From contig NZ_JACHNU010000006.1 in the NCBI RefSeq assembly GCF_014199525.1, positions 186,001 through 250,000 of the forward strand: DNA of 64,000 nucleotides. The letters run 5' to 3'. The DNA is from Conexibacter arvalis (GTDB lineage Bacteria > Actinomycetota > Thermoleophilia > Solirubrobacterales > Solirubrobacteraceae). The position numbers were made by a program, and so were the translations under genes. Under the pieces are notes generated by a model. The model was not told the DNA's origin. It ran no database searches and saw only the letters and a list, made by a program, of their open reading frames with translations. This document shows positions 1,987 to 60,644 of the stretch, one piece after another (the stretch's first letter is position 1; every line of letters starts with the position of its first letter).

Positions 1987-3263
1987 CGCGCCCCCTGCCC
2001 CGCGTCTCCGGCCGCCCCGCCGCCGTCGCCCGCCAGCGCCAGGCGCCGCAGCTCGTCGGCGCAGTCGTCGCCGAGGCTGGCGCGCAGGTCGGTCGGATCG
2101 GGCTCGCGCGCGTCGGGCAGACGCAGCTTCCAGCCGTGCTCCAGCCACGCGCTCCACAGGTCGCGCCGCTCCAGCACCGCGTGCGCCGCGGCCGCGCCCG
2201 ACTCGGTCAGATGGATCCGCTCGCCGTCGCGCGCCAGCATGCCGGCGCGGTCGAGCGCCGACAGCGCCCGCGCGACCTGCCGACGCGGCCGCCCGCTGGC
2301 GAGCGCCAGCTCGCGCGGGGTCGGCGGCGGGCCGGCGTGGATCGTCGTCTCCAGGTCGACGAGCACGCCCTCCACCAGCGCGCGACGGCGGTCGCGGGCG
2401 AGCTTGCGGCCGCGCCACAGCACCCCGCGCCCGGGCGCCAGCAGGACCGTCGCCAGCACGACCGCGAAGCCGACCAGCACGATCACCGGCCCGGTCGGGA
2501 CCTCGGCGCGCGCGGCGATCAGCGCGCCGGCCACGCCGACCGCCGCGCCGATCAGCGCGGCGAGCGGGATCAGCAGCGACAGCCGGTTGCAGAGCTGGCG
2601 CGCGGCGACCGCCGGGACGACGAGCATCGCCACCATCAGGATCGCCCCGACCGTCCGCAGCCCGATCACGACCGCGACGACGAGCAGCATCGTCATGAAG
2701 ATCTCCAGCAGCCGCACCGGCAGGCCGACGGCGCCGGCGAACGCGGGGTCGAACAGCGTCGTCTTGAGCGGCCGGAAGGCGAGCGCGACGACGGCCAGCG
2801 CGACGACGGCCAGCACCGCCATCACGTCGAGGTCGCGCTCCAGCAACCCCGCCGCCTGCCCGAACAGATAGGTGTCGAGGCCGGCCTGGTTGGCGTCGTT
2901 GGTCGAGGCGATGTGGGTCAGCAGCACGATCCCGAGCGAGAAGAAGCTCGACAGCACGACGCCGATCGCCGCGTCCGGGCGGACGCGGCTCGTGCGCTCG
3001 ATCCCGACCATCAGCAGCGCGCCGACCAGCCCGGCCAGCGCGGCGCCGACGAGCAGCGTCGTCGCGTCCTTGGCGCCGGTCGCCAGGAATGCGACGCAGA
3101 CGCCCGGCAGCGCCGCGTGCGCGAGCGCGTCGCCGACGAGGCTGCGCTGGCGCAGGACCGCGAAGACGCCGAGCGCGCCGGCGGCGATCCCCAGCAGCGC
3201 CGCGCCGATCGCGACGACCGCGTCGCTGTAGTTGAGCGGCAGGAGGTCGATCAGCCAGCCCAC
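1983..3263 (-). CDS. Metal ABC permease fused to a C-terminal DtxR-like repressor domain
   Basis: Residues 1-275 are an ABC-3 permease (LRQRSLVGDALAHAALPG near 38-54, RPLKTTLFDPAFAGAVG near 164-180, VGAILMVAMLVVPAVAARQL near 205-224). Residues about 290-405 are soluble and resemble the winged helix and start of the dimerisation domain of DtxR/MntR repressors: TPRELALASGRPRRQVARAL as HTH, then HLTESGAAAAHAVLERRDLWSAWLEH. The same architecture is known from chlamydial YtgC-YtgR, where the repressor half is released by cleavage. The GTG start at 3263 overlaps the ATPase gene by 13 bases. Length is 426 residues against about 290 for a plain permease. A palindrome over the operon promoter (5042-5057) is a candidate site for this domain. 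Whether the protein is cleaved is not visible. Confidence 0.85.
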   Translation of the reverse strand: MGWLIDLLPLNYSDAVVAIGAALLGIAAGALGVFAVLRQRSLVGDALAHAALPGVCVAFLATGAKDATTLLVGAALAGLVGALLMVGIERTSRVRPDAAIGVVLSSFFSLGIVLLTHIASTNDANQAGLDTYLFGQAAGLLERDLDVMAVLAVVALAVVALAFRPLKTTLFDPAFAGAVGLPVRLLEIFMTMLLVVAVVIGLRTVGAILMVAMLVVPAVAARQLCNRLSLLIPLAALIGAAVGVAGALIAARAEVPTGPVIVLVGFAVVLATVLLAPGRGVLWRGRKLARDRRRALVEGVLVDLETTIHAGPPPTPRELALASGRPRRQVARALSALDRAGMLARDGERIHLTESGAAAAHAVLERRDLWSAWLEHGWKLRLPDAREPDPTDLRASLGDDCADELRRLALAGDGGGAAGDAGQGAR

Positions 3264-4063
3264 GAGAGCGCCTCCCCGGCGTCCCGCCCGACCGCGTCGG
3301 CGCCGGCGCCGTAGGCGCGCGCGAGCGTCTCCCTCGTGACGACCTCCGCGACCGGCCCCTCCGCGACCGCGCGCACGTTCAGCAGCAGCGCGTGGTCGAA
3401 GGCGCCGCGGACGGTGCCGAGGTCGTGGTGGACGACGACGATCGAGCGGCCCTCGTCGCGCAGCGCCGCCAGCAGCTCGAGGATGCTCGCCTCGGTGCGC
3501 GCGTCGACCCCCGAGAACGGCTCGTCCATCAGCAGCAGCGGCGCCTGCTGGGCGAGCGCCCGCGCGATGAAGACGCGCTGGCGCTGACCGCCGGAGAGCT
3601 GGCCGATCTGGCGGCCGCGGAAGTCGCCCATGCCGACCCGCTCGAGGCAGTCGTCGACGAGCGCCGCGTCCCTGCGCGGCACCCGCCGGAACCAGCCGGT
3701 CGGCGCGTAGCGGCCCATCTCGACGACCTCGCGGACGGTGATCGGGAAGTCCCAGTCGACCGCGTCGCGCTGCGGGACGTAGGCGACGCGGTCGCGCGCG
3801 GCGCCGACCGGCCTGCCCTCGACAAGCGTCTGGCCGGCGTCGGCGGGGATCAGGCCGAGGGCGGCCTTCAGCAGCGTCGACTTGCCGGCGCCGTTGGGCC
3901 CGACGATCGCCGACAGCCTGCCGGCCGGGAAGCTCGCGTCGACGTCCCACAGCACCGGCCGGGCGCCGTAGGAGACGGTCATGCGGCGGATCTCCAGCGC
4001 GGGCGCCCGGTCGCCAGCGCCGCGGCCGGCGGTCGGCGGCCCTCCGTCCTGGTGCGCGCTCAT
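3251..4063 (-). CDS. Metal ABC transporter ATP-binding protein (TroB-like)
   Basis: This 270-residue cytoplasmic ATPase has all catalytic motifs: Walker A GPNGAGKST at residues 55-63, a Q-loop near YVPQRDAVDWDFP (the WDFP element is typical of metal-transport ATPases), signature LSGGQ at 156-160, Walker B LLLMDEP with D180/E181 and a switch histidine at 212-213. It powers the paired permeases downstream. It starts inside the stop codon of the binding-protein gene and its own end overlaps the next permease. The first 20 residues are a disordered Gly/Pro-rich leader, so a slightly later start is possible. Confidence 0.93.
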   Translation of the reverse strand: MSAHQDGGPPTAGRGAGDRAPALEIRRMTVSYGARPVLWDVDASFPAGRLSAIVGPNGAGKSTLLKAALGLIPADAGQTLVEGRPVGAARDRVAYVPQRDAVDWDFPITVREVVEMGRYAPTGWFRRVPRRDAALVDDCLERVGMGDFRGRQIGQLSGGQRQRVFIARALAQQAPLLLMDEPFSGVDARTEASILELLAALRDEGRSIVVVHHDLGTVRGAFDHALLLNVRAVAEGPVAEVVTRETLARAYGAGADAVGRDAGEALSWAG

Positions 4064-6910: not shown

Positions 6911-8335
6911 TCAGGCGCCGCCGGTCGCCCCTCCCCGGCGCGCGACGGCCGGGGCCCGGACGGCGGCAGCGCTCGGCGCGCGGAGCGCGACGACCACGGC
7001 GCCGACGGCGAGCACGGCGGCACCGACCAGCAGCGCGGCGCCGAAGCCGTCGACGAAGGCGGTCGCGTCCATGCCGGGCCCGATCTCGCCGACGCGATCG
7101 GCGAGGACGCTGCCGAGCACGGCGATGCCGAGCGCGCCGCCGACCTCGCGCGCAGCGTCGTTGACGGCCGAGGCGACCCCCTGCTCGGCGTCGGGCAGCG
7201 ACGAGACGATCGCGGTCGTCGCCGGGGTCGTCGCGAGCGCCATCCCGAGCCCGAGCGTCAGCCCGCCCGCGAGCAGGTGCCAGTACGAGGAGCCGGCGTC
7301 CATCGTCGACAGCACGACGAGGCCGACCGCCATCAGGGCGAGGCCGACCGGCCCGACCGGCCGCACGCCGACCCGCTCGACCAGCCGCGGCACGCGCGGC
7401 GCGACGGCGACCATCACGAGCGCCATCGGCGCGAGCGCCGCGCCGGCCTCCAGCGGCGACCAGCCGAGCACGAGCTGGAGGAACTGCAGCAGCACGAAGA
7501 TCAGGCCGAACGCGGCGAAGAACTGCACGAAGACCGACAGCGAACCGGCGCCGAAGCCGCGCAGCAGGAACAGCCGCGGGTCGAGCATCGGCTGCGCCCG
7601 GCGCAGCTCCCAGACGACGAAGGCGGCGCCGAGCGCCAGCGCCGCGGCGAAGCCGCCGACGACGAGCCCGTCGCCCCAGCCGCGCTGCGGACCCTCGATG
7701 AACGCCCACACGAGCGCGGTCAGCGCGAGCGCCGAGAGCGCGCCGCCGAGCGGGTCGAGCGGCTTGCGCTCGTGCCGTTCCCGCGCCGGCACGACTCGCA
7801 CCGTGCCGACGATCGCGACCGCCGCGAGCACGACCGACAGCGCGAAGACCGACGACCAGGCGGCGACCTCCAGCAGCGCGCCGGAGACGAGCAGCCCGAG
7901 CAGCGCGCTGCCGCCGGCGACACCGGCCCACGCGCCGACGGCGCGGTCGCGCTCGCCGGCCGGGAAGGTCGCGGTGACGATCGACAGCGTCGCCGGCATG
8001 ATCAGCGCCGCGCCGAGGCCCATCGCGGCGCGGACCGCGATCAGCGCGCCGGGATCCGACAACGTCGTCGCGACGGCGGCGCCGGCGCCGAAGATCGCGA
8101 GGCCGGCGAGCAGCGTCCGGCGGCGGCCGAAGCGGTCGCCGATCGCGCCGGCCGGCAGCAGCAGCCCGGCGAAGACGAGCGCGTAGGCGTCGACGACCCA
8201 TTGCAGCTGCGTCGGCGTCGCGCCCGTGTCGCGCGCCATGTCGGGCAGCGCGACGTTGAGCGAGGAGACGGCGCTCACGACGGTCGCGAGCGCGAAGCAC
8301 ATCATCACGAGGATCGAACGGCGCTGACCAGCCAT
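6911..8335 (-). CDS. MFS drug-efflux transporter (DHA2-like)
   Basis: This 474-residue membrane protein has 12-14 hydrophobic helices and MFS signatures: motif C-like region and GDRFGRRRTLLAG (motif A) after the second helix, and NVALPDMARDTGATPTQLQWVVDAYAL in the first part, typical of EmrB/LfrA/QacA relatives. Such proteins export toxic compounds using the proton gradient. The ATG has a good ribosome-binding site (GGAAGGAG). The gene is divergent from a TetR repressor at 8507, and the shared intergenic region carries two matching operator-like palindromes, so expression is probably de-repressed by a drug-like ligand. Confidence 0.9.
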   Translation of the reverse strand: MAGQRRSILVMMCFALATVVSAVSSLNVALPDMARDTGATPTQLQWVVDAYALVFAGLLLPAGAIGDRFGRRRTLLAGLAIFGAGAAVATTLSDPGALIAVRAAMGLGAALIMPATLSIVTATFPAGERDRAVGAWAGVAGGSALLGLLVSGALLEVAAWSSVFALSVVLAAVAIVGTVRVVPARERHERKPLDPLGGALSALALTALVWAFIEGPQRGWGDGLVVGGFAAALALGAAFVVWELRRAQPMLDPRLFLLRGFGAGSLSVFVQFFAAFGLIFVLLQFLQLVLGWSPLEAGAALAPMALVMVAVAPRVPRLVERVGVRPVGPVGLALMAVGLVVLSTMDAGSSYWHLLAGGLTLGLGMALATTPATTAIVSSLPDAEQGVASAVNDAAREVGGALGIAVLGSVLADRVGEIGPGMDATAFVDGFGAALLVGAAVLAVGAVVVALRAPSAAAVRAPAVARRGGATGGA

Positions 8336-8374
8336 CGCTGCGCTCCTTCCACCGCCTCGACCCCCTCGACTCGG

Positions 8375-8423
8375 GACCTCTGTCATCGAGCTGTCGCTGA
8401 GCGACAGGTGGATGACAGAGGTC
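8375..8423. repeat. 49-bp nested palindrome in the MFS/TetR intergenic region
   Basis: Outer arms GACCTCTGTCATC (8375-8387) and GATGACAGAGGTC (8411-8423) enclose an inner hairpin CTGTCGC-TGA-GCGACAG (8391-8407). Both arm pairs are perfect, so the strand could fold into a long interrupted hairpin. Its position in the 5' leader of the MFS gene allows an RNA role (attenuation, stability) or a DNA-binding role. It may also be a relative in form of the other roughly 50-bp palindromes in this window, though sequences differ. Confidence 0.7.
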
Positions 8424-8449
8424 CGGCTCGGGGTGGCGGGACGCTTGAG

Positions 8450-8512
8450 TTTCAACGGGTGTTGAAATCTCACGGTGGCAGGTCGTGGTGTAGATTTCAA
8501 CGGGCGATGAAA
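8450..8512. promoter_or_regulatory. Two TetR operator-like palindromes
   Basis: TTTCAACGGGTGTTGAAA (8450-8467) is a perfect inverted repeat with a GGGT centre. TTTCAACGGGCGATGAAA (8495-8512) shares 15 of its 18 bases and overlaps the ATG of the TetR gene. Two spaced copies of one 18-bp site between divergent repressor and efflux genes are the standard arrangement for autoregulation and control of the transporter. Confidence 0.75.
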
Positions 8513-9247
8513 AGACGGTCGGAGAGCAGACCGGCGCCGGCGAGCAGACCGACGCGGACGGGCACGCAGACGCCGGCGAGCAGACCAACGCGGACGAGCA
8601 GACCGGCGCCGGCGAGCAGACCGACGCGGACGAGCAGACCGGCGCCAACCGGCGCCGGCGCGGCGCGTGCGGGGGCGCGGCGGCGGGGGCCGCGCGGGGA
8701 CGGGGCGCGGGAGGCGATCCTGGCGGCGGCACGGGAGCAGTTCGCGGCGCGGGGCCTCGACGGGGCGACGATGCGGGCGATCGCGGCTGCGGCCGGCGTC
8801 GACGTGGCGCTCGTCTCGTACTACTTCGGCTCGAAGGCCGACCTGTTCGTCGCCTCGCTGCAGCTGCCCGTCAACCCCGCCGACGTGATCGACGGGCTGC
8901 TCGCCGACGGCACGGACGGGCTCGGCGAGCGGCTCGTCACGCGGCTGATCGCCGTCTGGGACGAGCCGGCGAGCGGCGGCCCGCTCGCCGACGTCCTGCG
9001 CTCGGCCGCGCCGCAGTTCGAGCTGCTGCGCGGCTTCCTCCAGCAGCAGATCGTCGCCCGGCTCGCGCGCGCGCTCGACGACCCCGACGCGGAGCTGCGC
9101 GCGACCGCCGTCGCCTCGCAGGTGCTCGGGCTGCTGCTGTCGCGCTACGTGCTGAGAGTCGAGCCGCTCGCCTCCGCCCCGCCGGAGCGCGTCGTCGCGC
9201 TCGTCGGGCCGACGCTCCAGCGCTACTTCGACGGCGAGATCGGCTGA
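8507..9247 (+). CDS. TetR family regulator with repetitive N-terminal extension
   Basis: The TetR DNA-binding domain is at residues about 66-115 (AREAILAAAREQFAARGLDGATMRAIAAAAGVDVALVSYYFGSKADLF), followed by a helical ligand-binding domain of about 130 residues. The first 60 residues are unusual: RPAPASRPTRTSRPAP-type repeats encoded by near-identical 30-base units. The extension is basic and disordered. Initiation inside it, after the repeats, cannot be excluded, but the ATG at 8507 coincides with an operator copy. It likely represses itself and the divergent MFS exporter gene. Confidence 0.85.
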   Translation: MKRRSESRPAPASRPTRTGTQTPASRPTRTSRPAPASRPTRTSRPAPTGAGAARAGARRRGPRGDGAREAILAAAREQFAARGLDGATMRAIAAAAGVDVALVSYYFGSKADLFVASLQLPVNPADVIDGLLADGTDGLGERLVTRLIAVWDEPASGGPLADVLRSAAPQFELLRGFLQQQIVARLARALDDPDAELRATAVASQVLGLLLSRYVLRVEPLASAPPERVVALVGPTLQRYFDGEIG

Positions 9248-9272
9248 GCGCGACGCGGCGGGCGGGCGGGCG

Positions 9273-9300
9273 GCGCGGCCGGCCGGTGCCGGCGCCGCGC
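9273..9300. terminator. Possible bidirectional hairpin between convergent genes
   Basis: GCGCGGC (9273-9279) pairs with GCCGCGC (9294-9300) around a GC-rich centre that can pair further. There is no T-run, as is common in this genome. It lies between the ends of the TetR gene and the convergent hypothetical gene. Confidence 0.4.
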
Positions 9301-9305
9301 GCCCG

Positions 9306-9914
9306 CTACCTGCAGCGCTCGGGCGCGACGTGGCGCTCGAGCGCGACCGCGAGCCGTCCGATCCGCTCGCGATCGCAGCAGTCCCAGCGCGCCTGCGGCG
9401 ACAGGGTCGCCTGCTCGGTGACGTGGCGGACGAGCTGGCCGTCGGCGTCGCGGAAGCTGCCGATCACGCGGCCGACCGGCGTCGCGCCCCACGCCTCGTG
9501 GCAGTCGGTGCAGCGCAGCGCCGCGGCGAGCGCCGGGAAGCCGGCAGCGACCGGCAGGCAGCGCGCGTAGAGCTCGGCCAGCTCGACGTCGGCGACACCG
9601 GCCGACAGCGCCGCCTCGGCCTCCAGCTGCAGCGTCCGCAGGCGCAGCTCGACCTCGCCGCGCGGCAGCCCCTCGGCGCGGGTGCGCAGCTGCTCGACGC
9701 GGTCGCCGAGCTCCTCGACCGCCTCCAGCAGCTCGGCGACCTGCTCCTCCGACAGCACCAGCGCCGAGGTCGCGCTCAGCTCGGGGTCGACGCCGCGCAC
9801 CAGCGCCAGCGCGTGCAGCAGCGCGACCTCGGTGCCGCGGAGCCGCTCGGCGACCTCCACCCACCGCGCGGTCGCGCCGATCTCGTACGTCTCTTCATCG
9901 CTCACCGCGGGCAT
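9306..9914 (-). CDS. Hypothetical protein with coiled coil and Cys pairs
   Basis: I do not recognise this 202-residue protein. A central region (EEQVAELLEAVEELGDRVEQLRTRAEG) should form a coiled coil. The C-terminal third has clustered cysteines: CTDC followed by HEAWG, then WDCCDRERIG and a final Cys near the C-terminus, which could bind a metal or form disulfides. There is no signal peptide or membrane helix. The ATG at 9914 is chosen because the region before it (SGTDYRTVYHYREDC) overlaps what looks like promoter sequence. It is divergent from the PadR-ABC operon across about 170 bases. Confidence 0.6.
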   Translation of the reverse strand: MPAVSDEETYEIGATARWVEVAERLRGTEVALLHALALVRGVDPELSATSALVLSEEQVAELLEAVEELGDRVEQLRTRAEGLPRGEVELRLRTLQLEAEAALSAGVADVELAELYARCLPVAAGFPALAAALRCTDCHEAWGATPVGRVIGSFRDADGQLVRHVTEQATLSPQARWDCCDRERIGRLAVALERHVAPERCR

Positions 9915-17644: not shown

Positions 17645-18900
17645 CTGCCGGCCTCCGGGCGCCCGACCGCCGGCGCGGCCGGCGCGGTGCGGGCTCTCGG
17701 CATGTTCGGCTGCGCCGGCGGCGCCGGCACGGTGCGGTAGTCGACCTGCGGCGGCACCGCGATCCGCGGCAGCCTGCCGACGCCGATCGCCTCCGCCTCG
17801 CCGCAGCGCGTCGCCCGTTCGAGGCCCGCCGGCGAGCTGGTGCGCGGCCGGTTGCCGGAGAAGCAGTTGCCGCCGGTCGTCCCGTTCGTCTGCAGCGCCA
17901 GGTCGAGGCGGTTGCCGGCGAGGCGGTTGTCCTCGATCCGGTTGCCCTCCGCGGTGTACGTGTCGCTGTCAAGCACGACGATCCCGACGGCCCGATGGCC
18001 GCGGACGCGGTTGCCGCGCACGACGTTCTCGCGCCCGCCGTTGATCACGATGCCGGCGCCGAAGCCCTGCGAGCCGCGCGGCGCGCCCTTGTCCTGGTTG
18101 TCGAACACGTCGTTGTCCTCGATCGTCATCTCCACCTGCGGCGCGGCGCGCTCCTTCGTCAGCGAGTTGACCTGGATGCCGACGCGGTTGCGGCGCGTGA
18201 GGTTGTCGCGCACGACGACGTCGCCGCCGGCGTTGGTGAACTCCAGGCCGACGTGGTTGAGCTCGGTGACGCTGTCGGTCACGAGCGCGTTGCACGGCTT
18301 GCAGCGGCCGAGGTAGATGCCGCTGTCGGGATGGCCGGAGGCGTAGACGTGGTCGAAGCGCCCGTGCTGGACCCCGAAGGCGTAGACGCCGTAGAGCCCG
18401 TTGTCGTAGGCGGTCAGGTACGACCCGCGCCACCCCTGCGTGTAGCGGCCCTCGGCGGCGTAGGCGCCGTCGGTGAACCAGACGACGCCGTTGACCTGGT
18501 AGTTGCGGACGGTCAGGTTCTCGACCGCGACGCCGCCGGCGGAGACCTTGATCCCGTCGGCCAGCTCGTGTCTGCCGTCGAGGATCACCTTGTTGCGGTC
18601 GGCGCCGCGGATCACCACGTCGGGATGCTCCTCGTCGACCTCGACCGCCTCGTGGTAGACGCCGGGCGCGATCAGCACGAGGTCGCCGGGCCGGCTCGCG
18701 TCGACGGCCGCCTGGATCGTCGCGTAGCTCGACGGGACGTTGAGGACGCGGCCGCTCGCCGCGGTCGCGCGCTCGGTCGCCGGCGGCGGCGCCGCGGCGG
18801 TCGGGGCGGCGGTCGTGCCGGCGTCGTCGCCGTCGCCGCTTCCGCATCCGGCGACGACGAGGGCGGCGATCAGCGCGATCAACGGGCCGATTCGGGTCAA
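17641..18900 (-). CDS. Exported parallel beta-helix lipoprotein (NosD/pectate-lyase-like repeats)
   Basis: This 419-residue protein begins with a lipoprotein signal (ALVVAGC) and a disordered Ala/Thr/Pro linker. It then has a right-handed parallel beta-helix: VPSSYATIQAAVDASRPGDLVLIAPGVYHEAV is the classic opening, followed by repeats such as VAVENLTVRNYQVNG, VVVRDNLTRRNRVGIQV, MTIEDNDVFDN and NVVRGNRVRGHRAVGIVV. A CKPC pair occurs near the middle. Such proteins bind or cleave polysaccharides or hold metal sites (NosD). The TTG start at 18900 overlaps the stop of the peroxidase gene (TTGA) behind a GGAG sequence. It is co-transcribed with the peroxidase and a small lipoprotein. Confidence 0.78.
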   Translation of the reverse strand: MTRIGPLIALIAALVVAGCGSGDGDDAGTTAAPTAAAPPPATERATAASGRVLNVPSSYATIQAAVDASRPGDLVLIAPGVYHEAVEVDEEHPDVVIRGADRNKVILDGRHELADGIKVSAGGVAVENLTVRNYQVNGVVWFTDGAYAAEGRYTQGWRGSYLTAYDNGLYGVYAFGVQHGRFDHVYASGHPDSGIYLGRCKPCNALVTDSVTELNHVGLEFTNAGGDVVVRDNLTRRNRVGIQVNSLTKERAAPQVEMTIEDNDVFDNQDKGAPRGSQGFGAGIVINGGRENVVRGNRVRGHRAVGIVVLDSDTYTAEGNRIEDNRLAGNRLDLALQTNGTTGGNCFSGNRPRTSSPAGLERATRCGEAEAIGVGRLPRIAVPPQVDYRTVPAPPAQPNMPRARTAPAAPAVGRPEAGR

Positions 18901-20081
18901 CTCAGGAGCTCCTCTCCGATGTGCTCGCCCCGTCCGGGCGCCGGCGGGACCGCGTAGATGCCGCCGGCGGTGTGGACGAGGTAGCGGTGCAGCTCGTCGT
19001 CGCGCAGCATCCGCGCGAGCATCGGCGCGACCTGGCGGGCCGGGTCGGCCGCGAAGCAGACGAACGCCATGCCGGCGTCCTGCTCGCCGTCCGCGGTCGC
19101 GCCGTCGTCGTAGTTGTAGGCGCGGCGCAGGATCCGCGCGCCGTCGTTGGCGTCGGGATGGGCGAGCCGGACGTGCGAGCGCGGCGGCGCCGCGGCGAGC
19201 GCCAGCGGCGTCGTCTCCCCGCCTCCGGTCAGCGGCCCGCCGCTCGCCTTGCGGCGGCCGATCGCCCGCTCCTGGACGTCGAGCGGGCTGCGGTCCCACG
19301 CCTGCATCCGCATCCGCACGCGGCGGTAGACGAGGTAGGTGCCGCCGGCGAGCGGCCCGCCGGCCGGCAGCCACACGTGCCGCACAAGCGCGGCGGCGTC
19401 GTCGGGCGCCGGGTTGACGGTCCCGTCCTTGAAGCCGAAGAGGTTGCGCGGCGTGCCGCCGGCGGCTGGCCGCGAGAGGAAGCCGTGCTGGGTCCACCGG
19501 CGCCGGGCGATCCCGAGCGCGGCGTTCGTCAGCTGGTGGACGGCGTGGAAGACGACCTGGCGGTCCTCCCCGCGCACCTGCAGCAGCAGGTCGCCGCCGC
19601 CGCGAGCCCGGTCGAGCGCCGCCTCGCCCGGCAGCGGCGTCGCGAGCCCGGCCGGGCGGCGCTGGGCGAAGCCGTAGCGATCGTCGAACAGCGAGGCGCC
19701 GAAGCCGACGGTGATCGTGAGGCCGGCGCCGTCGAGGCCGGCCCGCTCGCCGGTGTCGTGCCCGGTCGACGCCGCGCCGACGCCGGCGTCGGCCGCGCCG
19801 TCGCGCGCGCCCCCGCACAGCGCGACGATCAGCGCCGTCCAGTCGCGCAGCAGCCGCGGGACGTCGGCGCGGTCGGGCGTGTGGAGGTCGAAGGCGGCGA
19901 GCGTCAGGTGGGCCTGCGGCGGCGTCGCGATCCCCGCCTGCCGCGCGCCGTCGAACGGTCGCGCCGGCGGCCGCGCCTCCGACCGCGCGCCGCCGGCGAA
20001 GTGGATCGCCCCGCCGCCCGCGAGCGCGCCGACGGCGACGCCCGCCAGCGCCTCGCGCCGACTCACGCGCGGCGCGCGCAC
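18897..20081 (-). CDS. Tat-exported DyP-type heme peroxidase (EfeB-like)
   Basis: This 394-residue protein has a Tat signal at the N-terminus (VSRREALAGVAVGALAGG) and the DyP fold. The hallmark NLFGFKDGT is at residues about 213-221 (catalytic Asp219), with SHVRLAHPDANDG containing the heme-ligand region near the C-terminal third. DyP peroxidases oxidise diverse substrates with peroxide, and EfeB relatives release or oxidise iron outside the membrane. No efeU or efeO is adjacent. Instead a beta-helix lipoprotein and another lipoprotein follow in the same operon. The GTG start at 20081 is chosen for its GAAGGAAGG site and position just before the Tat motif. Confidence 0.87.
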   Translation of the reverse strand: MRAPRVSRREALAGVAVGALAGGGAIHFAGGARSEARPPARPFDGARQAGIATPPQAHLTLAAFDLHTPDRADVPRLLRDWTALIVALCGGARDGAADAGVGAASTGHDTGERAGLDGAGLTITVGFGASLFDDRYGFAQRRPAGLATPLPGEAALDRARGGGDLLLQVRGEDRQVVFHAVHQLTNAALGIARRRWTQHGFLSRPAAGGTPRNLFGFKDGTVNPAPDDAAALVRHVWLPAGGPLAGGTYLVYRRVRMRMQAWDRSPLDVQERAIGRRKASGGPLTGGGETTPLALAAAPPRSHVRLAHPDANDGARILRRAYNYDDGATADGEQDAGMAFVCFAADPARQVAPMLARMLRDDELHRYLVHTAGGIYAVPPAPGRGEHIGEELLS

Positions 20082-20136: not shown

Positions 20137-21729
20137 TCATCTTCCAAAGGACCGCGAAACGGCTGCGACCTTCGAGGGAGGCCCGCCCCTCGCGGCACGC
20201 CGGACGGCCGTCGCGCGCCGATGCATGAGCGCGATCAGCTGCGCGCGCGACCGCACGCCGCACTTGACCATCACGCGCGTCATGTGCGCCTTGACCGTCG
20301 CCTCCGCGATCCCGAGCGCGGCGGCGATCTCCGCGTTGGTCGCCCCGTCGGCGGAGCGGCGCGCGACCTCCCACTCGCGCACCGTCAGGCCTGCGCGCGG
20401 GACGCCGGCCGGAGGCGCCGGCGGGCGGGCATGGGCGCGCAGCAGCAGCGGCTCGGCCGCCGCCTCGACCAGCGGCTGCAGCCCGAGCAGCTCGGCGACC
20501 GCGCGCTCCCGCAGGCAGTCGGAGCGGCGTGCTCGCGCGATCCACACGAGCCCGGCGGCCCGTCCGTGCACGCGCACGACGAGGACGAGCGGCGCCGACC
20601 ACCCCGCGCCGGCGGCGAGGCCGTCGATCCGGTCGGCACGGGGATGGACGGCCTCCGCCGTCGCCACGTCCCACGTCTGCGGCTGGCGCGCGAGATCGCG
20701 GACGAACTCCGGCGCGAACAGCGCCGCGTGGAGCATGCGCGCACGCTCGCCGGCCGGTCCGCCGGCGGAGGCGTCCGCGAACGCGACCTCGCCGCGCACG
20801 ACGGCGCCCCGGCCCGAGAGGGCGGCGTAGCCGCCGACGACGCCGTCGATCCGCTCGCGCGACCACCGCAGCAGCGCTTCGAGCAGCCGCTCGGCGGTCG
20901 CGGCGTCCTCCTGCGGGGTCTGCCACGGCGGCTGGGCGGCGGGCGCGAGGCGCCGCGTCACGTCCCGCCGCGTCCGCGCACCGAGCTTGAGCAGGATCTT
21001 GCGGGTGTGCGACTTCACCGTCTCGATCCCGACGTGCAGCGCACGGGCGATCTCGGCGTTCGTCGCGCCGTCGGCGATCATGCGCGCGACCTCGCGCTCG
21101 CGGGCGGTCAGCGCCGCCACGAGCCGGTTCTCGCCGAGGACGTCGCTCGTCGCCTCGACGTAGGCATGCTCGACCAGCGGCTGGAGCGCGTCGAGCACGG
21201 CCAGCTGGCGCGGCGTCCAGCCGCGGCTCCGCAGCGACCGCCACAGCGTGATGCCGCCGACCAGCCTGCCCTCGGCGCGCACCAGCAGACGGGCGTCGTT
21301 GACGACCCCGATCCGCCGGTAGGCGGCGGCGAGCTCGGGCCGGCGCGCGACGGCGAGCGGGAGCCCGCCGACGTCGTCGAGGGTCGCGGTTCCCCGGCCG
21401 CTCGCGGACAGCGCCGCCGGGGCGAGCGGGTCGAGATCGCGCAGCGCATGCTTCCAGCGGGCGACCGCCGCCACCGCGGTCGGCGGTGAGACCGGCATCC
21501 AGACGATCGAACGCCGCAGCTCGCCGGCCGCGCCGGTGGTGAAGAAGGTCGCCGCCTCGGGGCCCAGCTGCCGCGCGACCGCGTCGAGCGCGACGGCGGC
21601 CGCCGCGCCGGAGGGGCTCTCGAGCCGGGCGTCGGCCGCATGCACGACATGCGGCAGCCCGCTGCCCGTCCCCTCCGGGCCTCCGCCCGACCGCGCCGCG
21701 GCGCCGCCGGGCGCGCCCCCATCCGCCAT
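20137..21729 (-). CDS. LuxR-family regulator with two HTH domains (tandem duplication)
   Basis: This 530-residue protein consists of two similar halves. Each has a GAF-like or otherwise alpha/beta sensor region followed by a LuxR/NarL HTH. HTH 1 spans about residues 207-261 (LTAREREVARMIADGATNAEIARALHVG then ETVKSHTRKILLKLGARTR). HTH 2 is at about 448-502 (LTVREWEVARRSADGATNAEIAAALGIA then ATVKAHMTRVMVKCGVRSR). The shared ADGATNAEIA segment shows the halves are paralogous. No receiver phosphorylation site is visible. One polypeptide may act as a built-in dimer. It lies upstream of the peroxidase operon on the same strand and 140 bases from a second LuxR regulator. Confidence 0.82.
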   Translation of the reverse strand: MADGGAPGGAAARSGGGPEGTGSGLPHVVHAADARLESPSGAAAAVALDAVARQLGPEAATFFTTGAAGELRRSIVWMPVSPPTAVAAVARWKHALRDLDPLAPAALSASGRGTATLDDVGGLPLAVARRPELAAAYRRIGVVNDARLLVRAEGRLVGGITLWRSLRSRGWTPRQLAVLDALQPLVEHAYVEATSDVLGENRLVAALTAREREVARMIADGATNAEIARALHVGIETVKSHTRKILLKLGARTRRDVTRRLAPAAQPPWQTPQEDAATAERLLEALLRWSRERIDGVVGGYAALSGRGAVVRGEVAFADASAGGPAGERARMLHAALFAPEFVRDLARQPQTWDVATAEAVHPRADRIDGLAAGAGWSAPLVLVVRVHGRAAGLVWIARARRSDCLRERAVAELLGLQPLVEAAAEPLLLRAHARPPAPPAGVPRAGLTVREWEVARRSADGATNAEIAAALGIAEATVKAHMTRVMVKCGVRSRAQLIALMHRRATAVRRAARGGPPSKVAAVSRSFGR

Positions 21730-21871: not shown

Positions 21872-24148
21872 TCACCTGGGTGAATTCGCGCCCGGCGCGG
21901 CGCCCTCGACGGCGGTGGGCCGGTCGGCGATCTCGCCGCGCACCGGGTCGAGCAGGCCGCGGGCGCGCGCGACCGCGACCGCCTCCGCGCGCGAGCCGAC
22001 GCCGAGCCGGCGGTAGATGCGCCGCAGGTGCGTTCCGACCGTGTCGGAGGAGAGGTAGAGGGCGGCGGCGATCTGGCGGCGACTCAGCTCGCTGGGCAGC
22101 AGCGCGAGCACCCGCCGCTCGGCTCTCGTCGGGCTGGTCCCGAGCAGCTCGTCGCCGTCGCGCGCCAGCGCCGCCTCTACGGCCGCGAGCCGCGGCTCGA
22201 CGATGCCGGCGTCGAGGTGGTCGTCGACGATCGCGCGGGCGGCGGCGGCGCTCTCGCGCGCGGCGCAGCGCTCCCCGCGGTCGAGCTCCAGCTCGGCGCG
22301 CAGCAGCAGCGTCAGGGCGTCGTGGAGCGAGCCGGGGACCCGGCGCGTCAGCCGCGCGGCCCGTGCGAGCTCGCGCTCGGCGTCGGCGCGCAGGCCCGCG
22401 GCGCGCGCGACGGCGGCGACCGCCTGGTGGACGTAGGCGTGGTCGAGCGCCGGCGCCTCGCCGCGGACGTGGGCGAGCGCCGCGCCGGCGTGGGCGAGCG
22501 CCCGCTCCTCCCTGCGGTCGTCGACGGCGACGAGTGCGAGCGTCGCCAGCGCCCACCCCCGGTGGCGGCCGGCCGTCGCGTCGAGATGGGCCTCCAGCAG
22601 CGACCGCGCCGCGCCGCTCTCACCGGCGAACCAGAGCGCCATGCCGAGGTTCGCCGCGATCGCCGCGCGCGCGGGCAGCGGCTGTTCGCGGACGCGCGCG
22701 AACAGCGCTCGCCCGCGCTGCACCGACTCGGCGACGCGGCCGAAGAACGGCAGCGTGAGGCAGCGCTCGACCAGCGCCTCGACGCCGGGCGCGTCTGAGC
22801 GGTCGCGCAGCGCGCGGAAGCCGGCGTCCAGCTCCGCCGGCGAGAGGGCGCCGTCGAGGCCGCCGGCGAGCAGCCCGAGCGCCCGGCAGTAGGGGCCGAA
22901 CTCGCCCCGCTCCGGCGGGATCGCGTCGATCAGCCGCCGCACCGTCGCGTAGCGGCGCGCGCGCATGAGCGTCTCGCCGTGGCGGTGGACGAGGGCCGCG
23001 GCGGCACGGCCGTCGCCGGCGGCGCCGGCATGGGCGATCGCCTCCTCGACGCGGCCGCTCGCATCCAGCCAGCGCGACGCGCGCAGGTGCAGCGCGCCGA
23101 CGAGCTGCGGCTCCCGCGCGTGCAGCTCCCGCCGCAGCAGCTGCGCGAGCAGCCGGTCGCAGCGGAGCGACCCGCCGGCGCCGTCGTGGTCGGCGTCGGG
23201 CTCGGGGTTGCTCGCGACCAGGTTGGAGCGGCGCGCACGCTCGAGCAGCTCGCCCGCGGCGGGGGCGTCGAGCACGGCGGCGCAGAGCGACGCGTCGAGC
23301 CGCGCGAGGATCGAGGTGCGACGCAGGAAGGTGCGCAGCTCCGGGTCGAGCTGGTCGAGCAGCTCCTCGCCGAGATACGCGTCGACGTCGGCGCGGGAGC
23401 GCGCGAGCGCCTGCCGGAAGCGCGCGTCGTCGGGCTCTGGCGGCAGCGAGTCGGCGACCAGCGCCAGGCCGGCCGGCCAGCCGCCGACGCGCTCCTCGAC
23501 GGCCGCGAGCTGCTCGCGGCTCAGCGCGAGCCTGAGCGCGCCGTTCAGCAGCCGCTCGCTCTCCGCCGGCCGGAAGGCGAGCGTCCGCGGCCCGACCTCG
23601 GTCACCGTCCCCGCCGCCCGCCGCCGCGCAAGCCGCAGCGGCGGCGCCGACCGCGTCGCGACGACGACGCGCGCGCCGGGCGGGAGCGCGTCGATCAGCG
23701 CCTCCAGGAGGCGATGGCAGGCCGGCGCGCGCACGTGCTGCAGGTCGTCGAGGACGAGCGCGAAGCCGTCGGCCGACGCGGCCGCCTCCAGCCCGTCGAG
23801 CAGACGCGGCAGCACCTCCTCGAACGGGTCGGCGTCGTCGCGCAGCGCGCGCTGCGCCTCGACCGCCGCCTCCGTCTCGACCGTGCCGAGCGCCGCCGCG
23901 AGGTGCGCGAGCAGCCGTCGCGGGTCGTCGTCGCCGGCGTCGAGCGACAGCCACGCCGTCGGCTGGTCCGCCGACTCGACCCACTGCGCGAGCGCGGTCG
24001 TCTTCCCGCAGCCGGCCGGCGCGCAGACGACCGTCAACGGCCGGCCGCCGCCGGCGTCCAGCGATCTCGTCACGCGGCGCCGCGCGATCGTCCGGCGGTG
24101 CGGGCGCGGCACCCGCAGCTTGGCCTGGGTGAGGAGCGGGAAGGTCAT
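21872..24148 (-). CDS. MalT-like LuxR-family ATP-dependent regulator
   Basis: This 758-residue protein has the STAND/MalT layout: N-terminal P-loop NTPase with Walker A APAGCGKTT (residues 43-51), Walker B region FALVLDDLQHV, ARC-like regions with GWPAGLALVADSL, a long TPR-like helical middle (about 370-670) and a C-terminal LuxR HTH (about 690-745: TRAERRVLALLPSELSRRQIAAALYLSSDTVGTHLRRIYRRLGV). Such proteins bind a small ligand and ATP, oligomerise and activate transcription. The target is unknown. It is divergent from the large surface-protein gene at 24434, which is a candidate target by position. Confidence 0.88.
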   Translation of the reverse strand: MTFPLLTQAKLRVPRPHRRTIARRRVTRSLDAGGGRPLTVVCAPAGCGKTTALAQWVESADQPTAWLSLDAGDDDPRRLLAHLAAALGTVETEAAVEAQRALRDDADPFEEVLPRLLDGLEAAASADGFALVLDDLQHVRAPACHRLLEALIDALPPGARVVVATRSAPPLRLARRRAAGTVTEVGPRTLAFRPAESERLLNGALRLALSREQLAAVEERVGGWPAGLALVADSLPPEPDDARFRQALARSRADVDAYLGEELLDQLDPELRTFLRRTSILARLDASLCAAVLDAPAAGELLERARRSNLVASNPEPDADHDGAGGSLRCDRLLAQLLRRELHAREPQLVGALHLRASRWLDASGRVEEAIAHAGAAGDGRAAAALVHRHGETLMRARRYATVRRLIDAIPPERGEFGPYCRALGLLAGGLDGALSPAELDAGFRALRDRSDAPGVEALVERCLTLPFFGRVAESVQRGRALFARVREQPLPARAAIAANLGMALWFAGESGAARSLLEAHLDATAGRHRGWALATLALVAVDDRREERALAHAGAALAHVRGEAPALDHAYVHQAVAAVARAAGLRADAERELARAARLTRRVPGSLHDALTLLLRAELELDRGERCAARESAAAARAIVDDHLDAGIVEPRLAAVEAALARDGDELLGTSPTRAERRVLALLPSELSRRQIAAALYLSSDTVGTHLRRIYRRLGVGSRAEAVAVARARGLLDPVRGEIADRPTAVEGAAPGANSPR

Positions 24149-24433
24149 CTCGCGGGCACGTCGCGGGTTCGGTACCCCGCGCCCCCCTCCGAGCGGCGAG
24201 CCGTGCAGCATCGCCCGTCGAAACCCTGGTCAATGCTGTGCGACCGGGATTCGGCTGCGACCTCCGAGGGGCGACCTTCGGGTGATTGTCGTCCCGACCC
24301 GTTGCGCTCGTCGTCGTTGTGCCGATACCTGATCCGCATCGACAGTCCCTGACCAGAGGGAGACCAAGGGTGCAGTCAGGCACGATCACGCGGCACGCCT
24401 GCGATGGCGGCCGCCGGCAACGGAAGGGGGCCC
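24149..24433. promoter_or_regulatory. Divergent intergenic region between MalT-like regulator and surface protein
   Basis: No gene is visible in these 285 bases. They hold the promoters of two divergent genes. A 19-base stretch CGGCTGCGACCTCCGAGGG near 24251 matches, with one difference, CGGCTGCGACCTTCGAGGG near 20160 at the 3' end of the other LuxR gene. The surface-protein start at 24434 has a strong GGAAGGGGG site. Confidence 0.45.
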
Positions 24434-27400
24434 ATGCGCCCATCGACGGATAGGCGACGGACCGCCCGCTCGCGGATGCGCGACGGCGCCGATGCCGTGC
24501 TGCGCGCACGGCGGCGCACGCTCGTGCCCCTGGCCGCCGCGGCGGCCGTGCTGGTGCTGCCGGGCGTCGCCGGGGCGGCGACGGTCAGCGGCACGGCGTT
24601 CGAGGACTTCAACGACAACGGCGTGCGCGACAGCGCACCGGTCTTCGACGCCGGTGTCGGCGGGATCGCCGTCACCGCCTACGGCCCCGGCGGCGCCGTG
24701 CTGGCCAGCAGCACGACGGCCGCCGACGGCAGCTACAGCCTCAACGTCCCCGATCCGGCCGCGCGCGTCCGGCTCGAGTTCACCGGCCTGCCGGCCGGCT
24801 ATCAGCCGGCGCGCCATGGCGCGAGATCGGGCACGACCGTCCAGTTCGTCGACCTCTCCGGCGGCGACGCGACCGGGATCGACGTCGGCGTGCTGCAGCC
24901 GGCCAACTTCTGCCAGGACAATCCGCAGCTGGCGGTCGCCTGCATGCAGTTCGGCGCGCGCGACGGCGATCACGCCGGCGACACCGCGTTGCGACTGGTC
25001 GCCGACGCGACCGCCGACAACGAACCGCCGGTCGGCGGCGGCTCGCAGGGCAGACTGCCCGGCGAGGTCGCGGGCGCGACCTACGCGCAGATCGGCTCGG
25101 TCTTCGGCGTCGCCAACGTGCAGGGCAGCGGCTTCGCCTACTCCTCGGCGTACACGAAGCGCCACGCCGACTGGGGCCCGGGCGGCGCCGGCGCGATCTA
25201 CCGCACCGATGTCGGCCAGGCCAACGCGGGCACCCCGAACGCCACGCTCTTCTTCGACGTCAACTCCCTCCCGAGCAGACCGGCCGGGAGCGCGACGCGC
25301 GGGACGAACGGCTGGGTCCGCGACAGCGACTCCTTCGACGCGGTCGGCACCACCGGCCTCGGCAACCTCGTCGCCAACGGCGACGGCTCGGCGCTCTTCA
25401 CGGTCGGCCTCGGCAGCCGCGAGCTGATCCAGGTCCCGATCCCGGCCGACGGCTCCACGCCGACGGGCGCGAGAACGTTCGCGATCCCGAGCCCGTGCGC
25501 GGTGCCCGGCGACGCTCGCCCGATGGGCCTCGGCTTCGACAAGCCCGGCAACGTCCTCTACGTCGGCGGCGTCTGCTCGGAGGCGAGCAGAGGCGATCCG
25601 GCGCCGAGAGCGGCGAGCGCCGACCTGTCGATCTACGTCTACGCGTTCGATCCGGCGACCGGGACGTTCAGCTCCGCGCCGGTCCTCGACGTGCCGCTGC
25701 CGGCCGACCGGCTCTGCACCTGGCGCTCGGCCGCGAGACCGTTCCCCGACCCCGCGTGCGGCGTCGCGAGCGCGACCTGGCATCCGTGGACGAGAACGTT
25801 CACGGCGACGCCGAGCTACGCCCAGCCGATGCTCTCCGACATCGCCATCGTCGGCGACGATCTCGTGCTCGGCTTCCGCGACCGCTGGCCCGATCAGATC
25901 GGGGCGAACTCACTGTCGCCTGACGGCAGCACGGCCGAGAACGGCGTCCAGTCCGGCTACGCGCTGCGCGCCTGCGCCAGCGGCGGCGGCTTCGCGCTGG
26001 AGAGCAACGGCGTCTGCGGCGACGTGACCGCCGGCGGCTGGCGCGGCATCGCCGACGTCGGCCCCGGCGACGGCCTCTTCTACTGGGACCAGGACTACAA
26101 CCACAACCCGGTCGTGCCGCCGCAGGGCGCGCACGACTACACCGGCGTCGGCGGCCTGCTCCAGATCCCGGGCGCGGTCTCGCTGCGCCAGACGGCACAG
26201 GACGCGGCGAACGTCTGCCCGGCGGGCATGGCGACCAACACCTGCCCGACGGCCGAGGGCCCGAACTCGTCCGCCGGCGTGCTGTACCTCAGCAACAGCG
26301 ACGGCTCGCGCGACAAGGGCTACAACCTCTACACCCAGGACGGCACCAGCCCAGCGACTGCGACCTTCGGCAAGTCCAACGGCCTCGGCGACCTCGAGGC
26401 GCTCTGCGACGCGGCACCGATCGAGATCGGCAACTACGTCTGGTTCGACGCCAATCGCGACGGCGTGCAGGATCCCGACGAGACGCCCGTCGCCGACGTC
26501 GTGGTCGAGCTGCTGGACGCTGCCGGCAACGTGATCGCGACGACGAGAACCGACGCCAGCGGCCAGTACTGGTTCGACGAGTCCAACGTGCCGGGCGCGA
26601 TCCAGCCGCACACCGACTACACGGTGCGGATCCCGCTCGACCAGCCGGCGCTCGAGGGCTGGACGCCGACCGCCGACCACACCAGCGACGCGCTGCGCGA
26701 CTCCAACGGCGTCGTGTCGGGCCGCTACGTGATCGACCCGCTCAGAACGGGCGCGGCCGGCCACAACGACCACACGCACGACTTCGGCTTCTTCTGGTTC
26801 AACGTCTCGATCAGAAAGGCCGTCTCGTCGCCGACCGCGAAGATCGGCGACACGATCACGTACACGCTGACAGCCAGAAACGACGGGCCGTCGTGGGCGA
26901 CCGACGTGGTCGTCACCGACACCCTGCCCAGACAGCTCGAGCTGACGGGCGCGACGACCAGCCAGGGCACCTGCACGACGGCCGGCAACGCGCTCCGCTG
27001 CGAGCTCGGCACGCTGCGGCCGGGTCAGGTCGAGACGGTCACCGTGACCGCGGTCGTGCACAGATCGGGCACGATCGTCAACACCGCGGTGATCAGATCG
27101 CCGGGTGACAGAGACCCGAGCGACAACGAGGATCCCGAGGAGGTCAGAGTCCCTGAGCCCGACCTCTCGATCGTGAAGAGAGCGTCGGCCGCGACGGTCC
27201 AGCTCGGCCAGACGTTCACGTACACGCTGACGGCGAGAAACAACGGCCCGGGCGTGGCGAGAGACGTCGTCGTGCGAGACCGAGTGCCCGCGCAGCTGGC
27301 GGTCGTCTCGACGAGAACGCCGGTCGGCACGTGCGCGACCAGCCGCGCGACGGTCAGATGCGAGCTGGGCGCACTGGCCGAGGGTCAGGCGGTCCCGGTC

Positions 27401-27931
27401 ACGATCACCGTCCGCGCGGTCAGAACGGGCAGAACGGTGAACGTCGGCATCGTCGAGGTGCCGCCGACGCCGGAGGAGCCCAACCCGCCGAGAGACCCGA
27501 ACCCGAGAAACGACAGAGACGCGGCGAGAGTCGTCGTCAGAAGAGTCACGCTCGGGCTCACCAAGACGGTCAACCGCAGAGTGTTGCGGGCCGGCCAGCG
27601 CGCGACCTTCACGATCAAGGTCCGCAACCCGAGCCGCAGAGCGACGCTGCGCAACGTGCGCACGTGCGATCGCCTGCCGGCCGGGCTGGCGTTCGTGAAG
27701 GCGACGCCGAAGGCGAAGCTCAGCAAGGGCCGCTACTGCTGGACGGCCAAGACACTCAAGCCGCGCCAGAGCAAGGCGTACCGCATCACCGTGCGGGCGC
27801 TCAACGGCTCGGGCGGCAAGCGCGTCAACCGCGCCACGGCGACCGCCCGTGACGCGAACACCAGACGGGCCAAGCGCGCCGTCCGCGTCATCGGCGGCGC
27901 CGTCAGCCCGGCAGGAGGCGTCACCGGGTAG
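24434..27931 (+). CDS. Large secreted SdrD/DUF11 repeat surface protein
   Basis: This 1165-residue protein has a long signal peptide (cleavage after about VLVLPGVAGAA), an SdrD B-like domain (VSGTAFEDFNDNGVRDSAPVFDAGVGG, about residues 50-150), a large central domain of about 500 residues with paired cysteines, and a second B-like domain (NYVWFDANRDGVQDPDE, with Asp-rich calcium-binding pattern). Then come two clear DUF11 repeats (SIRKAVSSPTAKIGDTITYTLTARNDGP and SIVKRASAATVQLGQTFTYTLTARNNGP) and a third degenerate one with a Lys/Arg-rich end. There is no LPxTG or transmembrane anchor, so it is probably secreted or held by charge. Arginine codons in the DUF11 part are mostly AGA, unusual for this GC content. 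Confidence 0.85.
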   Translation: MRPSTDRRRTARSRMRDGADAVLRARRRTLVPLAAAAAVLVLPGVAGAATVSGTAFEDFNDNGVRDSAPVFDAGVGGIAVTAYGPGGAVLASSTTAADGSYSLNVPDPAARVRLEFTGLPAGYQPARHGARSGTTVQFVDLSGGDATGIDVGVLQPANFCQDNPQLAVACMQFGARDGDHAGDTALRLVADATADNEPPVGGGSQGRLPGEVAGATYAQIGSVFGVANVQGSGFAYSSAYTKRHADWGPGGAGAIYRTDVGQANAGTPNATLFFDVNSLPSRPAGSATRGTNGWVRDSDSFDAVGTTGLGNLVANGDGSALFTVGLGSRELIQVPIPADGSTPTGARTFAIPSPCAVPGDARPMGLGFDKPGNVLYVGGVCSEASRGDPAPRAASADLSIYVYAFDPATGTFSSAPVLDVPLPADRLCTWRSAARPFPDPACGVASATWHPWTRTFTATPSYAQPMLSDIAIVGDDLVLGFRDRWPDQIGANSLSPDGSTAENGVQSGYALRACASGGGFALESNGVCGDVTAGGWRGIADVGPGDGLFYWDQDYNHNPVVPPQGAHDYTGVGGLLQIPGAVSLRQTAQDAANVCPAGMATNTCPTAEGPNSSAGVLYLSNSDGSRDKGYNLYTQDGTSPATATFGKSNGLGDLEALCDAAPIEIGNYVWFDANRDGVQDPDETPVADVVVELLDAAGNVIATTRTDASGQYWFDESNVPGAIQPHTDYTVRIPLDQPALEGWTPTADHTSDALRDSNGVVSGRYVIDPLRTGAAGHNDHTHDFGFFWFNVSIRKAVSSPTAKIGDTITYTLTARNDGPSWATDVVVTDTLPRQLELTGATTSQGTCTTAGNALRCELGTLRPGQVETVTVTAVVHRSGTIVNTAVIRSPGDRDPSDNEDPEEVRVPEPDLSIVKRASAATVQLGQTFTYTLTARNNGPGVARDVVVRDRVPAQLAVVSTRTPVGTCATSRATVRCELGALAEGQAVPVTITVRAVRTGRTVNVGIVEVPPTPEEPNPPRDPNPRNDRDAARVVVRRVTLGLTKTVNRRVLRAGQRATFTIKVRNPSRRATLRNVRTCDRLPAGLAFVKATPKAKLSKGRYCWTAKTLKPRQSKAYRITVRALNGSGGKRVNRATATARDANTRRAKRAVRVIGGAVSPAGGVTG

Positions 27932-60552: not shown

Positions 60553-60644
60553 GGAGCGGCCCGGGGCCGGTGCCCCGAACGGCCTTCAAAGCCGTCGGCG
60601 GCGCGCTCTCCGCGCCGGGAAGGTTCGACTCCTTCGCCGCTCCG
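60553..60644 (+). tRNA. selC: tRNA-Sec (anticodon TCA)
   Basis: A complete 92-base tRNA-Sec folds as follows: acceptor stem of 8 pairs (GGAGCGGC 60553-60560 with GCCGCTCC 60636-60643), discriminator G60644, six-pair D stem CGGGGC/GCCCCG (60562-60567, 60572-60577) with a four-base loop, anticodon stem ACGGC/GCCGT (60579-60583, 60591-60595) with loop CTTCAAA containing TCA at 60586-60588, a long variable arm (60596-60618), and a five-pair T stem GAAGG/CCTTC with loop TTCGACT (60624-60630). The 8/5 acceptor-T helix and six-pair D stem are diagnostic of bacterial tRNA-Sec. CCA is not encoded. Confidence 0.97.

What the first reader, a model, noticed from the sequence alone, without database searches (positions are those of the whole stretch)
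20137..21729. One regulator with two complete sensor-LuxR HTH halves
Both HTHs retain the TNAEIA recognition-helix region and come from an internal duplication. A covalent tandem may bind two half-sites as a monomer or bridge two promoters. The near-identical ADGATNAEIA stretch suggests selection or recent conversion between halves.
Basis: partly seen in the sequence, partly recalled or inferred. Interest (0 to 1): 0.5.

Follow-up and report, generated by a model that had tools for sequence, protein, structure and literature searches.

The report
Fused double LuxR-type gene regulator
One soil-bacterium protein carries two complete copies of a sensor-plus-DNA-binding switch that normally works as two separate molecules, an unusual but understandable variant of a very common regulator family.

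Summary
The minus-strand ORF 21729->20137 (530 aa) is sensor-HTH-sensor-HTH, with both HTHs over the GerE (LuxR-family) cut-off. It is not an assembly or annotation accident: the same genome (genus Conexibacter, inferred) carries a second, full-length tandem gene 48% identical, so the tandem predates that gene duplication. These are the only 2 double-GerE frames among the genome's 55 GerE matches. No tandem turned up in 6 congeners, nor in the family, order, class and phylum samples searched. Predicted folds of each half match whole quorum-sensing LuxR receptors (RhlR, SdiA, CviR): a GAF-like sensor plus GerE.

Parts of the reading do not hold. TNAEIA is not the recognition helix. The shared ADGATNAEIA block is family consensus, and codon comparison gives no sign of gene conversion. 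The recognition helices differ consistently between halves. "Internal duplication" is unproven: N and C halves form separate clades inside a family of single-unit regulators, and fusion of two neighbouring paralogues fits equally well.

Best mechanism (inferred): a covalent pseudo-dimer in which two diverged LuxR units read an asymmetric pair of half-sites. New variant of a known kind; function untested.

The parts
20137..21729 (-). Tandem LuxR-type regulator gene (P0001, 530 aa): sensor-HTH-sensor-HTH
   Evidence: translation; GerE twice; codon-position GC; paralogue
21130..21639 (-). N-terminal GAF-like sensor (residues about 31-200)
   Evidence: AlphaFold model; GAF matches Z up to 13.7; RhlR/SdiA/CviR
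20950..21114 (-). First GerE HTH (residues 206-260)
   Evidence: 59.2 bits; DNA-bound LiaR 4wu4 Z 12.3, rmsd 1.8
20905..20946 (-). Short linker between the halves (residues 262-275)
   Evidence: low-confidence stretch; low conservation between paralogues (7 of 19 over residues 261-280)
20410..20904 (-). Second GAF-like sensor (residues about 276-440), diverged
   Evidence: AlphaFold of C half (mean pLDDT 82.6); GAF Z up to 12.1
20227..20391 (-). Second GerE HTH (residues 447-501)
   Evidence: 65.4 bits; DNA-bound LiaR 4wul Z 11.8, rmsd 1.0 and NarL 1je8 Z 11.8
21872..24148 (-). Upstream co-directional LAL/MalT-like STAND-LuxR regulator (P0002 plus its first residues), 142 bp before the tandem gene; neighbour, not part of the tandem
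   Evidence: AAA_22 and GerE
18897..20081 (-). Downstream co-directional Dyp-type peroxidase with twin-arginine-like leader, about 55 bp after the tandem gene; candidate target (inference)
   Evidence: Dyp_perox_N/C; gap sequence

Best explanation
The gene encodes a one-component LuxR-family transcription regulator that is a natural covalent pseudo-dimer. Two complete units, each a GAF-like ligand sensor followed by a GerE HTH, are joined by a short linker. Shown by sequence and predicted fold: both units are complete and both HTHs are conserved; the tandem is older than its duplication in this genome; the two units have diverged and each kept its own recognition-helix pattern. Inferred: the two sensors pair within one chain as LuxR receptors normally do between two chains, and the two HTHs together read a composite, asymmetric operator; the N sensor is the likelier ligand binder and the C sensor may be a partner or a second input. 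The unit probably arose when two neighbouring paralogous luxR-type genes fused, or by duplication within one gene.
For: Two GerE domains over the cut-off. A second tandem paralogue, 48% identical over the full length: N1-N3 51%, C1-C3 45%, while N and C halves align only over their last 52-118 aa. Between paralogues the HTHs are the best-kept parts (N 34 of 55, C 37 of 55) against sensors (80 of 167; 61 of 157). Recognition helices: TVKSHTR and TVKTHVR in the two N halves, TVKAHMT and TVKSHLT in the two C halves. Each half folds as sensor plus HTH; best PDB matches of each are whole LuxR receptors: RhlR, SdiA, CviR, QscR. Single-unit relatives exist, including two adjacent same-strand genes in G152.
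Against: No oligomer or DNA complex was modelled; in the full-length model the C sensor was poorly predicted (pLDDT about 40-50), and the good C-half model used an alignment with N-type and single-unit rows, which may lend it their fold. No operator was found: the two tandem genes' upstream regions share no 8-mer and show only weak inverted repeats. The C sensors have a changed D-P motif. Only two tandem sequences exist, both in one genome, so conservation rests on one comparison.
Confidence: 0.5

Rival explanations
1. Two tandem molecules dimerise, N unit with N unit and C unit with C unit, giving a four-HTH complex that bridges or loops two separate operators.
For: Each half by itself looks like a complete LuxR receptor, and such receptors act as homodimers (established knowledge). 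Distinct recognition helices would give two different sites.
Against: No pair of candidate sites was seen upstream (a weak test). Nothing computed here favours homotypic over intramolecular pairing.
Confidence: 0.25
2. Only one HTH reads DNA; the other unit is a regulatory or dimerisation module derived from a once complete regulator.
For: C sensors diverged more (61 of 157 identical between paralogues against 80 of 167 for N) and lost the D-P motif. The last helix of the N HTH is more charged than in single-unit relatives (alignments).
Against: Both HTHs are the best conserved parts of the protein, keep TVKxH, and superpose on DNA-bound GerE domains.
Confidence: 0.2
3. Frameshift, misassembly or a chance read-through of two neighbouring genes.
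For: Adjacent single-unit genes do occur (G152).
Against: One open frame with steady codon bias, and an independent full-length tandem paralogue at another locus.
Confidence: 0.02

Closest known systems
Quorum-sensing LuxR receptors (RhlR, SdiA, CviR, QscR, TraR)
   Same: Sensor with GAF-like alpha/beta fold followed by GerE HTH; Foldseek best hits of either half span the whole receptor.
   Different: Two units in one chain; sensor not over the Pfam Autoind_bind cut-off; the AHL-contact motif is not retained as such; no evidence for an AHL ligand.
LuxR solos / single-unit actinobacterial LuxR regulators (G150-G152, G194 proteins)
   Same: Nearest homologues; N half 37% identical to P0004.
   Different: One sensor and one HTH each, about 250-280 aa.
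Tandem luxR gene pairs (luxR-luxR-luxI of sphingomonads, PMC4288048, passages read)
   Same: Two related LuxR units side by side and diverged (about 50% pairwise identity there).
   Different: Separate genes; here one polypeptide and no luxI found.
LAL/MalT-type regulators
   Same: Share the GerE domain; one lies directly upstream (P0002).
   Different: No ATPase domain in the tandem protein.

Membership tests
LuxR (GerE, PF00196) superfamily | GerE HTH over the curated cut-off | tested here: met
   Two domains, 59.2 and 65.4 bits against 23.5; whole protein 114.5 bits
Quorum-sensing (AHL-type) LuxR receptors | Sensor domain PF03472 Autoind_bind over cut-off | tested here: not met
   No match in P0001; among 16 aligned proteins one matched at all, and P0004 reached 20.0 bits, below the 23-bit cut-off
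Quorum-sensing (AHL-type) LuxR receptors | GAF-like sensor plus GerE arrangement of the solved receptors | tested here: met
   Best Foldseek matches RhlR, SdiA, CviR for N half (E 1.4e-6) and C half (E 1.1e-7), on predicted models
Quorum-sensing (AHL-type) LuxR receptors | WYDPWG ligand-pocket motif (PMC4414361, passages read) | tested here: inconclusive
   N1 has W92 and D100-P101, N3 has D-L, C1 P-E, C3 D-L; spacing differs and no residue-level alignment to a solved receptor was obtained
Quorum-sensing (AHL-type) LuxR receptors | LuxI-type synthase in the genome | tested here: inconclusive
   No PF00765 match, but no control genome rang either
NarL/FixJ response regulators | Receiver domain | tested here: not met
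   No receiver family among the matches
Natural single-chain LuxR dimer (proposed kind) | Monomer occupies an operator with both HTHs | not testable with these tools
   Needs biochemistry

The most novel reading that the evidence does not exclude
A natural single-chain LuxR heterodimer: two non-equivalent sensors and two non-equivalent HTHs in fixed 1:1 ratio, working as a two-input regulator on asymmetric operators, and kept long enough to be duplicated within one genome.
Probability: 0.35. Interest if true: 0.6.

Novelty: new variant of a known kind. Interest (0 to 1): 0.36.

Why it matters
LuxR-type regulators normally need two identical chains and so read symmetric sites. A covalent pair of unlike units would be a natural test of how ligand binding, dimerisation and half-site choice are coupled, and a ready-made scaffold for asymmetric operators. 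It also gives a case for how fused regulators arise from neighbouring paralogues. The wider claim depends on function, which is untested; two genes in one genome make it a curiosity until more are found.

Tried and rejected
Gene conversion between halves: rejected on codon comparison and because the block is consensus (the 130 GerE domains used there were fetched for likeness to the query, so the 0.24% of pairs matching 10 of 10 in that block, and 1.7% in any block, are not a neutral sample). An unrelated LAL-like ORF (L050) carries the same ADGATNAEIA.

Internal duplication as the only origin: not decided. Trees of 15 and 21 rows put N halves and C halves each in a clade at full or near-full support, with their mutual position open; holding all four together costs 1.53 log units, p-AU 0.324.

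Shared operator upstream of both tandems: no common 8-mer. Ligand from the neighbourhood: the window gene sits between a LAL regulator and a Dyp peroxidase, the paralogue beside LysR- and PucR-type regulators and, beyond the LysR gene, an aminotransferase; nothing shared. Sensor-only profile against PDB sequences: no meaningful hit. LuxI search: no match, control silent. Plasmids and phages: 33 and 3 records with a match, 0 covering 80% of the query. Genome-contig scan: 4 loci, none a tandem. In the structure table for the full-length model the listed Z rows are mostly phytochrome GAF domains; that shows fold, not light sensing.

Limits of the distribution searches: in the larger samples only 3 to 19 candidates per genome were scored, and class and phylum were samples, so a rare or distant tandem could be missed. 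Tandems of unrelated sensor types were not searched for outside the own genome.

Full report
What is there. On the minus strand, 21729 to 20137 is one ORF of 530 aa. Codon-position GC shows coding bias from about 21687 onward and not in the upstream extension to 21867, so the ATG at 21729 is the likely start; AAGGGACGGGA stands just before it (sequence). Pfam finds GerE twice.

Is it more than chance? The two halves align at 43% over 113 aa, E 4e-17. In the whole genome (5.2 Mb, 18 contigs) 55 GerE matches were found; only two open frames carry two of them. The second is P0003, G000:C1:123599-125044 (L002:1501-2946), 48% identical to P0001 over the length; the stop reported inside its match is simply its own end. 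N1 matches N3 (51%) and C1 matches C3 (45%) far better than N matches C, so the tandem existed before the gene was duplicated.

Distribution. With the two-tandem profile, 0 of 6 other congeneric genomes had a match spanning both HTHs (one of the six had no match at E 1e-12). In the family (146 genomes including the own), 2 others matched at E 1e-25; in the order (232), 3 others at 1e-20; in class and phylum samples (399 and 396), 10 and 5 others at 1e-15. All listed matches outside the own genome cover one half or only an HTH. After all fetching, 193 GerE-bearing ORFs in 173 loci (redundant copies included) held no double frame except copies of these two genes. The genus is inferred as Conexibacter: congener G003 is a single contig of 6,359,369 bp, the length printed for C. 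woesei in PMC3035278 (passages read).

Relatives. Single-unit proteins of about 250-280 aa with the same sensor occur in G150, G151 and G152 (one genus of the same family) and G194 (same order). G152 has two of them side by side on one strand (G152:C79:88744-89409 and 87868-88572), and G150 has three within about 8 kb, not adjacent. Trees place N and C halves as two strongly supported clades within this family; whether they are sisters is open (p-AU 0.324). So internal duplication and fusion of paralogues are both alive. In the distant G661, a LAL-like gene lies directly upstream of a single-unit relative on the same strand (L169), as LAL gene P0002 lies upstream of the tandem here; a lead only (L169's upstream gene is named LAL-like by eye; it did not match the P0002 ATPase part, the stretch held being cut).

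Fold. AlphaFold with 16 sequences: N sensor mostly pLDDT 80-90, both HTHs above 90, C sensor poor. The C half by itself, with 17 sequences, reached mean pLDDT 82.6, though its alignment holds N-type and single-unit rows. Foldseek: full-length model, where the N half is the confident sensor, RhlR E 1.4e-6 with SdiA, CviR, QscR, LasR, TraR below; C half, CviR E 1.1e-7 and the same set. VIA-align: sensors match GAF domains at Z up to 13.7 and 12.1; HTHs match DNA-bound LiaR and, for the C half, NarL. By sequence alone the sensor of P0001 matches no sensor family in Pfam; one relative, P0004, reaches 20.0 bits on Autoind_bind (cut-off 23), and one of 16 aligned members matches GAF. I therefore describe the halves as working like LuxR receptors and do not file them as AHL receptors.

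From recall of NarL, the recognition helix of GerE is the TVKxH helix and TNAEIA belongs to the helix before it. The recognition helices differ: TVKSHTR (N1), TVKTHVR (N3), TVKAHMT (C1), TVKSHLT (C3). The difference at the last position shown (R in both N, T in both C) has persisted since before the paralogues split; this argues for two kept, unlike DNA-reading surfaces. The ADGATNAEIA identity is family consensus: 19 of 130 distinct GerE domains hold TNAEIA and 3 of 130 the full block, the third in an unrelated protein. Codon identity at shared residues is 20 of 28 against 17.4 expected (P 0.18), overall DNA identity 107 of 165 against 101 expected (P 0.08), longest identical run 12 nt against 14 expected: no sign of conversion.

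Constraint. Between paralogues the HTHs keep 34 of 55 (N) and 37 of 55 (C) residues; sensors 80 of 167 (N) and 61 of 157 (C); the linker region 7 of 19. The Asp of the sensor's D-P motif is present in N1, N3, C3 and 11 of 13 single-unit rows, absent in C1; the Pro after it is absent in N3, C1 and C3 (alignment-dependent). The register of the profile match to RhlR (profile 70 at RhlR 76) would put this Asp near the AHL-contacting Asp of receptors; inference.

Mechanism. LuxR receptors pair through sensor and HTH and read twofold sites (established). With a linker of about 14 residues, the two units can plausibly pair within one chain, and the differing recognition helices predict an asymmetric composite site. 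None of this was tested. Homotypic dimers of tandems (bridging) and a single working HTH remain possible. Neighbours: LAL regulator 142 bp upstream, Dyp peroxidase about 55 bp downstream, all co-directional, so the peroxidase is a candidate target; the paralogue's neighbours differ.

Literature. Six full-text searches of the open PMC library for double, tandem or fused LuxR/GerE proteins listed no paper that by title and abstract start is about such a protein; the nearest is the tandem luxR gene pairs of sphingomonads (PMC4288048, passages). A census of actinobacterial LuxR architectures (PMC3466318) holds neither 'two HTH' nor 'tandem' in its main text (term search and passages). Subscription papers and domain-architecture databases were not searched, so rarity in print is not absence.

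Verdict. Real, unusual, coherent with known kinds; new variant, moderate interest.

Noticed in passing
60553-60644 (+): ARAGORN calls a selenocysteine tRNA (anticodon tca) in the window; the genome may make selenoproteins, so in-frame TGA codons nearby deserve care.
   Followed up: no
L169 (G661), 1441-2643 and 2475-3776, minus strand: In a distant actinobacterial genome a LAL-like LuxR gene lies directly upstream of a single-unit relative of the tandem, the same order as in the window.
   Followed up: no
L127 (G152:C79), 7839-8681 and 8721-9560, minus strand: Two adjacent co-directional single-unit paralogues, a possible picture of the state before fusion.
   Followed up: partly
24404-27931 (+): Large repeat protein with SdrD_B and three DUF11 stretches, divergent from the LAL regulator gene; a likely surface protein.
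   Followed up: no
L133 8600-11211: The paralogue tandem gene is followed closely by a PucR-type regulator gene and preceded by a divergent LysR-type gene.
   Followed up: partly
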